In this document: in pieces, positions 15,522 to 51,975 of the stretch
How the letters are laid out: the number at the start of each line of letters is the position of its first letter
How positions within the stretch are numbered: position 1 is the stretch's first letter
NCBI GenBank assembly: GCA_040901445.1
Contig: JBBDYQ010000009.1
Location: 62,001 to 126,000 of the forward strand
Source of the DNA: Thermoleophilaceae bacterium
GTDB taxonomy: Bacteria > Actinomycetota > Thermoleophilia > Solirubrobacterales > Thermoleophilaceae
DNA length: 64,000 nt
Direction: 5' to 3'
The notes under the pieces: model-generated
Seen by the model: the letters and a program-made list of their open reading frames with translations, nothing else
Told to the model about the DNA's origin: nothing
The model's database searches: none
Program-made: the position numbers and the translations under genes

Positions 15522-16484
15522 CTATGGCGCCAGCATCCGCACCAGCTCGGCGGCAGGGCGCACGTCGTGGATGCGGGCCGCGGTCTCGCCCGCGTAGAGC
15601 GGGCCCGCATCCAGCAGGTTGCCCGGCGCGCCGGCGCTCGGCGGCAGGGGCGAGAAGAAGGGTCGCGAGGCCCGCTGCGTGGCGGCCAGTCGCAGCTGGA
15701 GGCCGATCGGGACCCGCCGCAGGGCGGGCGCGGTCACGCGGTTGGCCGCGCGCACCCACGCCGGCCCGCGCTTGTCGCCACGCAGCCAGCGCTCGGCGGC
15801 CTCGTTCCACAGCACGCGGTGGGACCCGTGCCAACCCATGCCGAACAGGTGGGTGAGCACGGTCTCGCGGCCCTCCATCAGCCTCTGCTTGTAGGCCTGC
15901 TGGGCGCCGCTCTCATCGCTCATCACGAAGCGGGTGCCCAGCACCATGGCGTCGGCGCCGGCCGCGAGGCCCTCCGCCACGTCGCCGCGGTCGGCCACGC
16001 CGCCGGCGAGCAGCACTCCAAAGCCGGCGGGCAGGGCCGCGCGCACGCGCTCCAGCAGGTCGAGCGCGGGCGTGGTCCCCCGCACGTGGCCGCCCGCCTC
16101 GATGCCCTGGGCGATCACGGCGTCGGCGCCCGCGGCGTGCGCGGCCTGCGCCTCCTCCACCGAGCCGCACTGGTGCACCCACAGGCCGGGCGTGCGGCGG
16201 CGCGGCCGGCCCCAGAAGGTCACGACGGCGTCGGCCTCCGCGGCCGCCGCGAAGTGCGCGCGCCGGGCGAACGGCAGCAGCAGGTTCACCGCCACCGGTC
16301 GCGAGGTCCGGTCGCGGACGTCGGAGAGCTGGGCGCGCAGCACCGGCGCGTCGGCGATGCCCAGGGTCCCGAGGCCCCCCGCTTCCGACACGGCGGCGGC
16401 CAGCTCGGGCCCCGCGATCCCGCCGCCCATGCCCGCCTGCACCAGCGGCAGCTCCACCCCGAGTCGCTCGAGCAGGCTGCTCAC
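15522..16484 (-). CDS. Nitronate monooxygenase / NPD-type flavin oxidoreductase
   Basis: A 320-residue FMN-binding TIM-barrel protein of the 2-nitropropane dioxygenase family, which oxidises toxic alkyl nitronates or reduces related substrates. Visible elements are LVQAGMGGGIAGPELAAAVS at the N-terminus, VIAQGIEAGGH, and the FMN phosphate-binding segment AGGVADRGDV through GADAMVLGTRF. Its GTG start at 16484 overlaps the stop of the upstream cell-wall hydrolase gene by four bases, so the three minus-strand genes 18828-15522 form one coupled unit. Physiological substrate is unknown. Confidence 0.82.
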   Translation of the reverse strand: MSSLLERLGVELPLVQAGMGGGIAGPELAAAVSEAGGLGTLGIADAPVLRAQLSDVRDRTSRPVAVNLLLPFARRAHFAAAAEADAVVTFWGRPRRRTPGLWVHQCGSVEEAQAAHAAGADAVIAQGIEAGGHVRGTTPALDLLERVRAALPAGFGVLLAGGVADRGDVAEGLAAGADAMVLGTRFVMSDESGAQQAYKQRLMEGRETVLTHLFGMGWHGSHRVLWNEAAERWLRGDKRGPAWVRAANRVTAPALRRVPIGLQLRLAATQRASRPFFSPLPPSAGAPGNLLDAGPLYAGETAARIHDVRPAAELVRMLAP

Positions 16485-18007
16485 AATTCGCCGACCAGCG
16501 CCTCGTACAGCGGCAGGAAGCGCTCTCCGTCGGGGCCCACCGTGAGGTGGATGGCCGCCGGCTCGTACACCCAGTCGATCACCGCGAGCGCGCGCAGCCG
16601 CTCGAGCACGTGCTCCAGGGCGCGGGCCTGCGCGCGGGAGTCGTAGTCGCGCTCGATGTCGATCGCGAAGCCGGTCGTGTGGAGCGAGAAGCCGTCGGTG
16701 GCCTGGTCGTTGCGCGGCAGCAGCTCGCGCTGATAGTCCTGGTCGCGCACGCTGCTCGTGATCGTCAGCGCGCCTGGGTCGCCGCTGATGTGCCGCACCT
16801 CCTTGGCGACGTAGAGGAGGATGGCCAGGGCCTCGGGGCGCAGCCCGCGGTACAGCGCGCGCGGCTCGTCCAGGCGCCGGGCCAGCTCGCCCATGCGCCG
16901 ATCCACCCGGTAGCCCAGCCGCTCGGGGCCCACGGGCAGCGCCACCAGCTCGCCGTCGCTATAGGCGTCGCGCAGCGCGCCGGCGTCCTCGTACGGCGGG
17001 TTGTCCTCCTCGGGGCGCAGCTCCTCCTCCGAGCTCGCCTTCGCCGCGTGGAGCCCGGCCCGGCGGCGCAGCTCGTCGACGTCCTCGGCATGGAGCCGGC
17101 GGATCTCGCGCGCGGCCTCGAGCCGGAACAGGTACGTGCGCGAGTCGTCCCCGAATGACGCCAGGCGCCGGAAGGCGAGGCGGTGGTGGGTGGGGGAGGA
17201 GTCGTAGAACAGGCGGACGTAGGAGAGCTCCTCGGAGCGGGGTCCGTCGTAGGCCTCGATCACGGACTCCAGGTTGCCGATCCCCATGTGGTAGGAGACC
17301 GCCGCGAGATCCTCGCGCCCGAAGCGCTCCCCGGCGAGCGCGAGGTAGCGGGCGGCGCCGTCGAGTGCCTTCTCCGGATCGAAGCGGTCGTCGGCGCGGC
17401 GGCGGGCGCGGCGCAGCCGAGCGGCGCGCCGTTCGAACAGCTCGCGTCCCTCGCTGCTGTCCGCCCGGTCCGCACGGCGGTCGGCTGGCGCGATGCGCTC
17501 CGTGAGCTCCTTGCTGCGCTCGAGGTCCACCGACATGCCCAGCAGGTCCACCGCCGTGCCGGGCAGGATCTGCCCGAGCCCGGCGGCGCTCTCGGGATCG
17601 TCGCCCGCCATCGCCTCCGGGCGGCCGGCGCTCTCGAGGAAGACCAGCGCCCCGAGGGTCTCCGCGGACACCCCGTGGCGCTCGGCCGCCGCCTCGATCA
17701 GGTCGCCGAAGGTGTCCACCCGCTCGGCCGTGGCCTCCACGCCGCCGGGGCTCTTCGCATACAGCACGTGCGCGTAGCCGCGGCGGCCGCGCTCGAGCAG
17801 GTCGTCCTCGTCCTGGGTCTCGTAGGAGATGGGCTCGAAGCCGGCCACGTCGAAGGTCTCCTCGCCGTCGCCCGGGCCGATCAGCGGCGCCTCCAGCGGG
17901 TCCTCCGGCCCGCCGGGCACGAGCAGCGTGGCCGCCACCGCGGCGGCGGCAAGGAGCACGGCCGCCACCAGCGCGGCGGCGCGCCTCGGACCGGCGCGCA
18001 CCCTCAC
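16481..18007 (-). CDS. Lytic transglycosylase fused to an M15-like peptidase domain
   Basis: A 508-residue exported protein. The N-terminus is one membrane segment (about residues 11-30) after a basic start. Residues about 100-290 form an SLT-type transglycosylase domain with catalytic Glu125 in FLESAGRPEA, then SAAGLGQILPG and later AVSYHMGIGN. The C-terminal domain (about residues 375-508) has SLHTTGFAID (His443, Asp450) and IHLTV (His487), which match the zinc-binding SxHxxGxAxD...H pattern of M15/VanY D,D- or L,D-carboxypeptidases. One polypeptide could therefore cut both glycan and peptide. The GTG start overlaps the CtaG stop (GTGA). The region from 290 to 375 is charged and helical. 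The M15 assignment is from motif only. Confidence 0.78.
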   Translation of the reverse strand: MRVRAGPRRAAALVAAVLLAAAAVAATLLVPGGPEDPLEAPLIGPGDGEETFDVAGFEPISYETQDEDDLLERGRRGYAHVLYAKSPGGVEATAERVDTFGDLIEAAAERHGVSAETLGALVFLESAGRPEAMAGDDPESAAGLGQILPGTAVDLLGMSVDLERSKELTERIAPADRRADRADSSEGRELFERRAARLRRARRRADDRFDPEKALDGAARYLALAGERFGREDLAAVSYHMGIGNLESVIEAYDGPRSEELSYVRLFYDSSPTHHRLAFRRLASFGDDSRTYLFRLEAAREIRRLHAEDVDELRRRAGLHAAKASSEEELRPEEDNPPYEDAGALRDAYSDGELVALPVGPERLGYRVDRRMGELARRLDEPRALYRGLRPEALAILLYVAKEVRHISGDPGALTITSSVRDQDYQRELLPRNDQATDGFSLHTTGFAIDIERDYDSRAQARALEHVLERLRALAVIDWVYEPAAIHLTVGPDGERFLPLYEALVGEL

Positions 18008-18828
18008 GTGGCCGCCGCTTCCTCCAGCCGCTCGCGACGCCGCTCCTCCTCCTCGGAGCGGCCGATCATGAGCACGAACAGCGTGGCGAAGGCGATCGCA
18101 AGCACGATCGACTGCTCGGCCATCATGATCGCGCCGCCCACGTTCTGGTCGTCGAGCGCGCTCAGGCCCCAGATGCGGGGGACGGTCTCGTAGTGGGAGT
18201 AGACGACGGTGTTGGACCATGTGAGGAAGACGCCGAGCCCGGCGAGCAGCGCCTTGCCGGCCCCGATGTAGACGAACGGCTGGAGGCCGGTCATCCGGTG
18301 TCGCATGGGCACCGGCTGCACCAGCGGCCACCAGAACAGCACGCCGGCGGCGAAGAACGAGGCGTGCTCGAGAGCGTGGAGCGCCGGCGTCTGCGTGGCC
18401 GCGTCGTAGAGGGCGGGGATGTGCCAGACGTAGACGAGCCCGAGCCAGCCGGCGAGGAACACGGCGGGGTGGGCCAGCCGCCCGAGCCGCCGCTCGATCG
18501 CCACCAGGCGGCGCGTGGCGGGGCGCATGATCACGCGCGAGAGCGACAGCAGGAGCAGCACGGGCGCGATGTCGCCCAGCAGCACGTGCTGGAGCATGTG
18601 CATGGAGAAGAGGTGCTCCTCGCCGAGGGCCGCGATCGGTGAGATCAGCGCCGCTGCCAGCGCCAGCATCGCGGCGGCGAAGGCCGCCGCCCGGGCGAGG
18701 CCGGCCCCGCGCCCGCCCGCCTCGCGCCTGGCGCCGCGGAAGCGCCAGGCGTAGATGCCGGCGTACGCGGCGAGCGCGAGCAGGATCATCGGGTCGAGCG
18801 TCCAGCGGATCTCGGGATCGGCGCTCAC
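18004..18828 (-). CDS. CtaG-like (caa3-type) cytochrome oxidase assembly membrane protein
   Basis: A 274-residue protein with about seven hydrophobic segments. It contains HMLQHVLLGDIAPVLLLLS and the HALEHASFFAAGVLFWW stretch typical of the Caa3_CtaG family, which is linked to copper insertion in cytochrome c oxidase. His residues in the membrane segments fit copper handling. The GTG start at 18828 gives a short N-terminus before the first helix. No cox genes lie nearby; instead it is translationally coupled to a cell-wall hydrolase, so its role here is uncertain. Confidence 0.8.
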   Translation of the reverse strand: MSADPEIRWTLDPMILLALAAYAGIYAWRFRGARREAGGRGAGLARAAAFAAAMLALAAALISPIAALGEEHLFSMHMLQHVLLGDIAPVLLLLSLSRVIMRPATRRLVAIERRLGRLAHPAVFLAGWLGLVYVWHIPALYDAATQTPALHALEHASFFAAGVLFWWPLVQPVPMRHRMTGLQPFVYIGAGKALLAGLGVFLTWSNTVVYSHYETVPRIWGLSALDDQNVGGAIMMAEQSIVLAIAFATLFVLMIGRSEEEERRRERLEEAAAT

Positions 18829-19533: not shown

Positions 19534-19563
19534 GCCCGGCAAGCGCTCACCCAGGCCGATGGA

Positions 19564-19686
19564 GGGTCAGGTCATGTCCTGCGACGGAACTCGAGCGAAG
19601 CTCCCGGTGCAGGGCATGACCTGACCCTGCTCGCGCGGCAACGAAACTCGAGCGAAGCTCCCGGTGCAGGGCATGACCCGACCCTG
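19564..19686. repeat. GGTCAGGTC palindrome with a duplicated right half
   Basis: GGGTCAGGTCATGTCCTGC (19564-19582) pairs with 19609-19627 with one mismatch, giving a 19-base-pair stem. The right-hand part, a 42-base unit starting AACTCGAGCGAAGCTC, is repeated at 19588-19629 and 19645-19686 with a single base difference. The outer sequence GGGTCAGGTC is also the tip of the perfect palindrome at 31447. No open frame fits here. It looks like a REP- or MITE-like intergenic element and may also act as the comF terminator. Confidence 0.75.
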
Positions 19687-19764
19687 GTCGCAGTCCGTTT
19701 GGATTCCGAGGCCGGCGCGCCTACCATGTCGAGCAGACCCTGACACGGACCGAAGGAGGAGCGG

Positions 19765-36794: not shown

Positions 36795-37156
36795 GGGGAC
36801 GACAGGCTTCGACGTGGACGTTCCGTGAGGGCAGTTGCGAGTCGAGGTTCCGGGCGGCCTCGTAAAACACCCGGAAAAACCATAAGTGCGGATTCACACG
36901 AGTTCGCGCTCGCTGCCTAGCTAAACCTAGCCAGTGAGCTGTTGGCCCGCCCTCGGCCCGTGGGGCGGATCGCCGGCATCAGAAACGGGCTCCGCCCGCC
37001 GCGATCGCCCCGGTAGCGGCGGGGACATTTACGGGGCTGGCTCTTCGGAACCCTGCCGGCGCGGCAACCGAGGGGCGAGACACAGAGCGCCGGATACGCT
37101 CGTAGACGCTGCCTTTCACACGCCCGCGGACGTGGGTTCGATTCCCACCGTCTCCA
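36795..37156 (+). ncRNA. ssrA: Transfer-messenger RNA (tmRNA, 10Sa RNA)
   Basis: About 362 bases. The 5' GGGGACG pairs with CGTCTCC at 37149-37155 to form the acceptor stem, and the 5' region continues GACAGGCTTCGACG as in other tmRNAs. The T arm GTGGGTTCGATTCCCAC is intact near the 3' end. The tag frame starts at GCG 36888 and ends at TAG 36918-36920, encoding ADSHEFALAA, with the usual ALAA degradation signal. After discriminator A37156 the DNA reads CTA, not CCA, so the 3' CCA is presumably added after processing. It rescues stalled ribosomes together with SmpB. Confidence 0.95.
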
Positions 37157-37225
37157 CTATTTGATCGCAAGGCCACCGTCCTCGGCCCTTCCCCTGCTCC
37201 CGCGGCGCGGACTACGCTCTTCGCC

Positions 37226-51155: not shown

Positions 51156-51437
51156 ATGACCTCCGAGCGAGCCCAGGCATACGGACGGGTGACGAGGACC
51201 CTCGATGGCCTCTCCCTCACGCCCGAGCAGCAGGCCGTGATCCGCGAAGCCGCGGACGGACTGCTCTTCTCCGAGGATCTCGCGGCCGACGCTCCCGCGC
51301 GTGAGGCGCTCGCCGAGCTGCGCGCCCTCGCCGGGAAGCTCGTGGACGACGACGTGCTCGAGCCCGGCACCGTCGAGCGGCTCGTGGGCGAGGTCGAGGA
51401 CTGCGGTCCGGTCGCGTCGGTCGCGCCGGTCGCGTAG
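51156..51437 (+). CDS. Small conserved-looking helical protein
   Basis: A 93-residue acidic protein predicted to be mostly helical (SLTPEQQAVIREAADGLLF, AREALAELRALAGKLVDD). TACCAT (51144-51149) ends six bases before the ATG, and codon use is typical of the window, so it is probably real. No motif or family is recognised. The 130 bases before it hold nothing that I can identify except a short GC palindrome. Confidence 0.6.
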   Translation: MTSERAQAYGRVTRTLDGLSLTPEQQAVIREAADGLLFSEDLAADAPAREALAELRALAGKLVDDDVLEPGTVERLVGEVEDCGPVASVAPVA

Positions 51438-51492
51438 CCCGCGAGCGCCACCCTCCCCTCAAGCCGCCCGTGGCTCGGCCGATCACACGGGG

Positions 51493-51975
51493 ATGAGCAT
51501 CGAGAGCGCAGTGCTGCGGGTGGCCGAGCTCCAGCGGTCGCTGGGGTGGTCGCCGCCGCCCACACAGCCTCCGCCCGGAGGGTTCGCCGGCGCGCTCGGC
51601 GCTGCGGCCGCAAGCCCGGGTGCCGTGCCGGCGCAGGCGGCGGCGCCCGGTTCGTATCCGCACCTCTCCGGTGATCTCGACGCGGCGCCCGACCTGCTCG
51701 CCCGCCTCGATGCCCTCGCCGCGCGGCGGGGAGAGCGCTTCGAGATCACCAGCGGGCATCGCAGCTACGACGAGCAGGCTCGGCTATGGGCCGGACGCGG
51801 CTCCAACCCCTTCCCGGTGGCGCAGCCCGGCACGTCCCGTCACGAGACCGGCCGGGCGGCCGACGTGACGATCGGCGGGCGGCCGATCCAGGACGTGATC
51901 CCCGCCGGCGAGCTGCTGGCAGCGGGGATCCGCCCGCTGGCGGGCGACGCGGTGCACGTCGAGCTTGTCGTGTAG
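51493..51975 (+). CDS. M15/VanY-like carboxypeptidase domain protein
   Basis: A 160-residue protein. An N-terminal helix (SIESAVLRVAELQRSLGW) and a Pro/Ala linker precede an M15-type zinc peptidase domain: ITSGHRSYDEQARLW, then SRHETGRAADV (His117, Asp124) and the last ligand His155 in VHVEL. It would cut D-Ala or related peptide bonds of peptidoglycan. There is no signal peptide, so it may be exported another way or be part of a phage- or flagellum-like apparatus, as the N-terminal helix resembles such proteins. A 51-base gap separates it from the preceding gene. Confidence 0.75.
   Translation: MSIESAVLRVAELQRSLGWSPPPTQPPPGGFAGALGAAAASPGAVPAQAAAPGSYPHLSGDLDAAPDLLARLDALAARRGERFEITSGHRSYDEQARLWAGRGSNPFPVAQPGTSRHETGRAADVTIGGRPIQDVIPAGELLAAGIRPLAGDAVHVELVV

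What the first reader, a model, noticed from the sequence alone, without database searches (positions are those of the whole stretch)
16481..18007. Transglycosylase and M15-type peptidase fused in one envelope protein
The N-terminal half has the SLT catalytic Glu125, and the C-terminal half has SLHTTGFAID plus IHLTV, the zinc-ligand pattern of M15/VanY peptidases. One enzyme could cut both glycan strands and peptide stems. It is coupled translationally to a CtaG-like gene and a nitronate monooxygenase gene, an unusual partner set.
Basis: partly seen in the sequence, partly recalled or inferred. Interest (0 to 1): 0.6.

Follow-up and report, generated by a model that had tools for sequence, protein, structure and literature searches.

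The report
Two-headed cell-wall cutting enzyme
This gene encodes a membrane-anchored protein that carries two predicted cell-wall-cutting parts, one for the sugar strands and one zinc-dependent for the peptide stems; such pairings are already known in bacteria, but this one is a diverged, largely unnamed version shared by one class of soil actinobacteria.

Summary
Window 16481-18007 (-) encodes a 508-aa protein: N-terminal membrane helix, SLT lytic-transglycosylase domain (Pfam E 5.9e-12, fold Z 14 to MltD), and a C-terminal domain that Pfam files as DUF5715 (above cut-off), not VanY (below cut-off). A confident AlphaFold model of that domain matches the Hedgehog/M15 peptidase fold, and profile comparison aligns H443, D450 and H487 with the VanY zinc ligands. 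These residues and the transglycosylase Glu125 are invariant across 38-39 orthologs. One genus has lost all three ligands, R421 and E482 together while keeping the transglycosylase site, which supports one functional zinc site. Best reading: a bifunctional wall hydrolase; bond specificity and activity are untested. The CtaG and nitronate-monooxygenase partners carry little weight: both GTGA overlaps are real, but one relative examined keeps CtaG and none keeps the monooxygenase. SLT plus M15 in one chain is also not unusual here: the same genome, and many others of the class, carry a VanY-SLT protein with the domains in reverse order. Verdict: real, mostly as described, a new variant of a known kind.

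The parts
16481..18007 (-). 508-aa two-domain protein: membrane helix + SLT + helical linker + M15/Hedgehog-fold domain (DUF5715)
17918..17995 (-). N-terminal membrane helix (about residues 5-30; model helix 7-28, hydropathy peak 2.70 at residues 12-30), no Cys and so no lipobox; signal anchor or signal peptide
17246..17740 (-). SLT lytic transglycosylase domain, about residues 90-254: E125-S126, G143-L-x-Q146, Y239-H240 (His where the VanY-SLT proteins have AYN)
17633..17635 (-). Codon of predicted catalytic Glu125
   Evidence: E in 38 of 38 orthologs covering it
16484..16915 (-). C-terminal M15/Hedgehog-fold domain (residues 365-508; the fold may begin nearer 320), Pfam DUF5715
16658..16681 (-). 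H443-x6-D450: first two predicted zinc ligands
16547..16564 (-). E482 (predicted general base, 37 of 39) to H487 (third predicted zinc ligand, 39 of 39)
16742..16747 (-). R421-D422: predicted substrate-side Arg, aligned with the Arg of the S-x-x-R motif of VanY proteins
   Evidence: R in 37 of 39
18004..18828 (-). CtaG-like gene upstream, GTGA overlap; kept next to the gene in one related genome among those examined
15522..16484 (-). Nitronate monooxygenase-family gene downstream, GTGA overlap; found next to the gene in none of the relatives examined

Best explanation
A secreted or membrane-anchored peptidoglycan hydrolase with two active sites. The SLT domain uses Glu125 to cut the MurNAc-GlcNAc glycan strand as a lytic transglycosylase. 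The C-terminal domain has the M15/Hedgehog fold; H443, D450 and H487 bind one zinc ion, E482 probably activates water and R421 probably holds a substrate carboxylate, so it trims or cuts stem peptides as a carboxy- or endopeptidase. Shown: the two domains, their folds by prediction, the conservation, and concerted loss of the zinc-site residues in one genus. Inferred: zinc binding, both activities, bond specificity, location outside the membrane, and cooperation between the sites.
For: Pfam SLT and DUF5715 above cut-off; at E <= 0.1 DUF5715 is matched by 35 of 39 orthologous C-termini and VanY by 20. Models with mean pLDDT 88.8 (full) and 93.1 (C-term). Residues 66-314 match MltD at Z 14.0, 177 residues, rmsd 3.2. 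The C-terminal model's 39 best VIA-align rows are all Hedgehog, VanY/LdcB, VanX, MepA, VldE or M15 endolysins (Z 8.5 down to 5.3); the first unrelated row is at Z 5.1. Profile comparison with VanY proteins of the class: Prob 95, E 3.5e-8 for one comparison, H443/D450/H487 on the VanY ligands. Invariance in 39 sequences. In L124/L125 (genus g182) R421, H443, D450, E482 and H487 are all lost while E125, GLxQ and Y239 stay.
Against: No VanY match above cut-off. E-to-His spacing is five residues, not three as in VanY or six as in Sonic hedgehog, and the H-x-H motif of M15A/Hedgehog is H-x-T. Two orthologs (L044, L064) lack both R421 and E482. SLT motif III is YH rather than YN, and loop 134-142 is poorly modelled. 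Hedgehog itself shows that this fold can act without shown peptidase activity.
Confidence: 0.72

Rival explanations
1. A lytic transglycosylase whose C-terminal M15-fold domain is only a peptidoglycan- or protein-binding module (pseudo-enzyme).
For: Fold Z to Hedgehog is as high as to any enzyme (8.5, tied with BaLdcB 8.0); diverged E-x4-H motif; L044 and L064 keep the zinc ligands but lack R421 and E482; genus g182 keeps the domain without the site.
Against: In most orthologs R421, E482 and all three ligands are kept together (37-39 of 39), which a pure binding module would not require.
Confidence: 0.2
2. A functional module with the CtaG and nitronate monooxygenase genes, linking wall remodelling to cytochrome oxidase assembly or redox chemistry.
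For: GTGA overlaps on both sides; CtaG also abuts the ortholog in L003, again with a GTGA overlap.
Against: No NMO next to any other ortholog and CtaG next to one only; among 14 loci with 5 kb or more of flank mostly, no gene family shared by the window and two or more others except the gene itself.
Confidence: 0.04
3. Phage-derived lysin or tail protein domesticated by the host.
For: PHROG matches to virion lysins, through the SLT half.
Against: One weak phage match, 26.8% identity over 33% of the protein; no viral contigs relative of the C-terminal domain; mostly one copy per genome, spread over several families of the class.
Confidence: 0.04

Closest known systems
VanY-SLT proteins of the same class (e.g. 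L093, in the same genome)
   Same: SLT and M15-fold domains in one envelope protein
   Different: Order reversed (VanY before SLT), with a TadE/G-like N-terminus in some; canonical WE-x-WH and AYNAG motifs; a separate protein in the same genome
CwlT bifunctional hydrolase
   Same: Glycan-cutting domain plus peptide-cutting domain in one protein (Xu et al. 2014, in the references of PMC6403190; DeWitt and Grossman 2014, in those of PMC11753425)
   Different: The peptidase is an NlpC/P60 domain and the protein serves conjugation of ICEBs1; here it is an M15-fold zinc site and no conjugation genes were seen next to it
LdcB/DacB and VanY (peptidase M15B)
   Same: Fold (BaLdcB Z 8.0), H-x6-D plus third His, Arg in the S-x-x-R motif
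   Different: E-x4-H instead of E-x2-H; below the VanY cut-off; fused to SLT
Hedgehog N-terminal domain and bacterial Hedgehog-like M15A proteins (PMC6027127, PMC8052667)
   Same: Fold (Z 8.5 alone, up to 11.9 in the full model); H-x6-D; C-terminal position, as reported for bacterial Hedgehog domains
   Different: H-x-T instead of H-x-H; below the HH_signal cut-off; calcium ligands not tested

Membership tests
SLT lytic transglycosylase (PF01464) | Family model above curated cut-off | tested here: met
   45.6 bits against 21.3
SLT lytic transglycosylase (PF01464) | Catalytic Glu-Ser and GLxQ motifs | tested here: met
   E125, S126, G143, L144, Q146 in 38 of 38
SLT lytic transglycosylase (PF01464) | Canonical motif III (A-Y-N-A/S-G) | tested here: not met
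   S-Y-H-M-G; Y239 and H240 invariant. A deviation in one motif, not in the catalytic Glu
SLT lytic transglycosylase (PF01464) | Lysozyme-like fold | tested here: met
   MltD Z 14.0, 177 residues, rmsd 3.2
SLT lytic transglycosylase (PF01464) | 1,6-anhydro product formation | not testable with these tools
   needs an enzyme assay
DUF5715 (PF18979) | Family model above curated cut-off | tested here: met
   28.6 bits full length, 32.2 for the domain, cut-off 26.8
VanY (PF02557, peptidase M15B) | Family model above curated cut-off | tested here: not met
   11.7 and 15.1 bits against 25
VanY (PF02557, peptidase M15B) | E-x2-H base and third ligand | tested here: not met
   E482-x4-H487
Hedgehog/M15 peptidase superfamily (LAS) | Fold | tested here: met
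   39 best VIA-align rows are all of this superfamily, Z 8.5 to 5.3
Hedgehog/M15 peptidase superfamily (LAS) | H-x6-D plus third His zinc ligands | tested here: met
   H443, D450, H487 in 39 of 39, aligned with VanY ligands; sequence level only
Hedgehog/M15 peptidase superfamily (LAS) | Ligands clustered in space; zinc binding; peptidase activity | not testable with these tools
Hedgehog signalling domain (PF01085) | Family model above curated cut-off | tested here: not met
   13.8 bits against 22.1
Hedgehog signalling domain (PF01085) | Two-calcium site | not tested
   ligands not mapped

The most novel reading that the evidence does not exclude
DUF5715 is an uncharacterised branch of the Hedgehog/M15 zinc peptidases with its own E-x4-H motif, and in this class it forms a bifunctional hydrolase that reverted to a single-function transglycosylase in one genus, with the zinc site lost but the domain kept as scaffold.
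Probability: 0.45. Interest if true: 0.45.

Novelty: new variant of a known kind. Interest (0 to 1): 0.33.

Why it matters
It gives a concrete function hypothesis and named residues to a domain of unknown function (no paper in the held library mentions DUF5715), and shows that the class pairs glycan- and peptide-cutting domains in two opposite orders. The genus that lost only the zinc site is a natural control for what the peptidase half does.

Tried and rejected
Conserved neighbourhood as a clue to function: none found. Phage origin: disfavoured. Plain VanY membership: rejected by cut-off. The sequence-only PDB search with the C-terminal profile gave only weak rows (best E 0.08, Hedgehog). 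The ungapped alignment there puts H487 on Hedgehog H181 rather than the ligand H183; I rejected that register because the VanY profile alignment and the invariance of H487 favour it as a ligand, but coordinates could not be read to prove it. A DUF5715 survey in Bacteroidales failed for lack of a genome handle. NCBIfam gave nothing useful for this protein.

Full report
Observation. The minus-strand ORF 16481-18007 is real, 508 aa, with a GTG start. It overlaps the CtaG-like gene upstream and the nitronate monooxygenase-family gene downstream by GTGA on both sides.

Domains. Pfam finds SLT and DUF5715 above their cut-offs; VanY is below. A hydrophobic peak at residues 12-30 and a model helix 7-28 make an N-terminal anchor or signal; there is no cysteine. 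The full model has mean pLDDT 88.8 and pTM 0.85. Its residues 66-314 match MltD, MltF and MltE (Z 14.0 to 12.6), and rows spanning the C-terminal part match Hedgehog (Z up to 11.9). Folded alone, residues 365-508 reach mean pLDDT 93.1. Foldseek ranks LysECD7, BaLdcB and ChiX first, and VIA-align puts Hedgehog, LdcB, VanX, MepA, VldE and M15 endolysins in its first 39 rows, Z 8.5 to 5.3, with the first unrelated row at 5.1. Single Z values near 8 are modest; the argument rests on the uniformity of the list.

Active sites. In 39 orthologs H443, G446, D450, H487, Y239, H240 and N245 are invariant; E125, S126, G143, L144 and Q146 are invariant in the 38 that cover them; R421 and E482 occur in 37 of 39. 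Profile comparison with VanY proteins taken from the class gives Prob 95, E 3.5e-8 for a single comparison, with the three ligands superposed. A natural experiment supports a single functional site: in two genomes of genus g182 the protein is kept to its C-terminus, but R421, H443, D450, E482 and H487 are deleted or replaced together while the transglycosylase residues remain. L044 and L064 have lost R421 and E482 but kept the ligands, so not every ortholog need be an active peptidase. The roles of E482 and R421 follow from the M15 mechanism as summarised in PMC11667670 and PMC6027127 and are inference for this protein.

Distribution. Orthologs occur in 50 of 299 genomes of the class; in the phylum samples the hits (6 of 198 and 8 of 296 genomes) all lie in that class. 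The class is probably Thermoleophilia, inferred from the record title of L019, a Thermoleophilaceae genome whose contig has the same length as one of the same-family genomes. No plasmid match and one weak phage match were found.

Context. In relatives CtaG is adjacent once (L003, again with GTGA) and the monooxygenase never. Many of those loci hold only about 1.5 kb of flank; in the window plus 13 other loci with mostly 5 kb or more of flank, no gene family other than the gene itself was shared by the window and two or more others (sharing with just one locus was not listed). The partner set therefore looks like a local arrangement.

Precedent. The same genome encodes a VanY-SLT protein with a TadE/G-like N-terminus (L093, the Tad match just under its cut-off). 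Of 17 VanY loci inspected in the class, 16 show at least one SLT motif in the same open frame, and all ten of these scanned with Pfam carry both domains. CwlT is a known protein with a glycan-cutting and an NlpC/P60 domain (reference lists of PMC6403190 and PMC11753425). The Hedgehog/M15 relation and C-terminal Hedgehog-like domains in bacteria are published (PMC6027127, PMC8052667). The general idea is thus known; the DUF5715 variant, its domain order and its motif spacing are what is new here, as far as the held library shows.

Verdict. Confirmed observation, partly supported interpretation, modest interest.

Noticed in passing
L093 (G000:C9, about 165354), same contig, outside the window: Protein with TadE/G-like N-terminus, VanY and SLT domains: an SLT-M15 fusion in reverse order, common in the class. 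A CpaE-like ORF (judged by eye) lies just upstream.
   Followed up: partly
L124 and L125 (genus g182): Orthologs that keep the transglycosylase site and the C-terminal domain but have lost the whole predicted zinc site.
   Followed up: yes
window 51301-51975 (+): A second, separate VanY-like domain (33.8 bits, cut-off 25) in a 224-aa ORF.
   Followed up: partly
window 19563-19691: Palindromic repeat, two copies 57 bases apart before a ribosome-hibernation-factor-like gene (judged by eye); its 30-nt core occurs 8 times in the genome with up to 2 mismatches, 0 for the reversed control.
   Followed up: partly
L044 and L064: Orthologs that keep the three predicted zinc ligands but lack the substrate-side Arg and the general-base Glu.
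   Followed up: no
window 36795-37157 (+): tmRNA gene, tag ADSHEFALAA.
   Followed up: no
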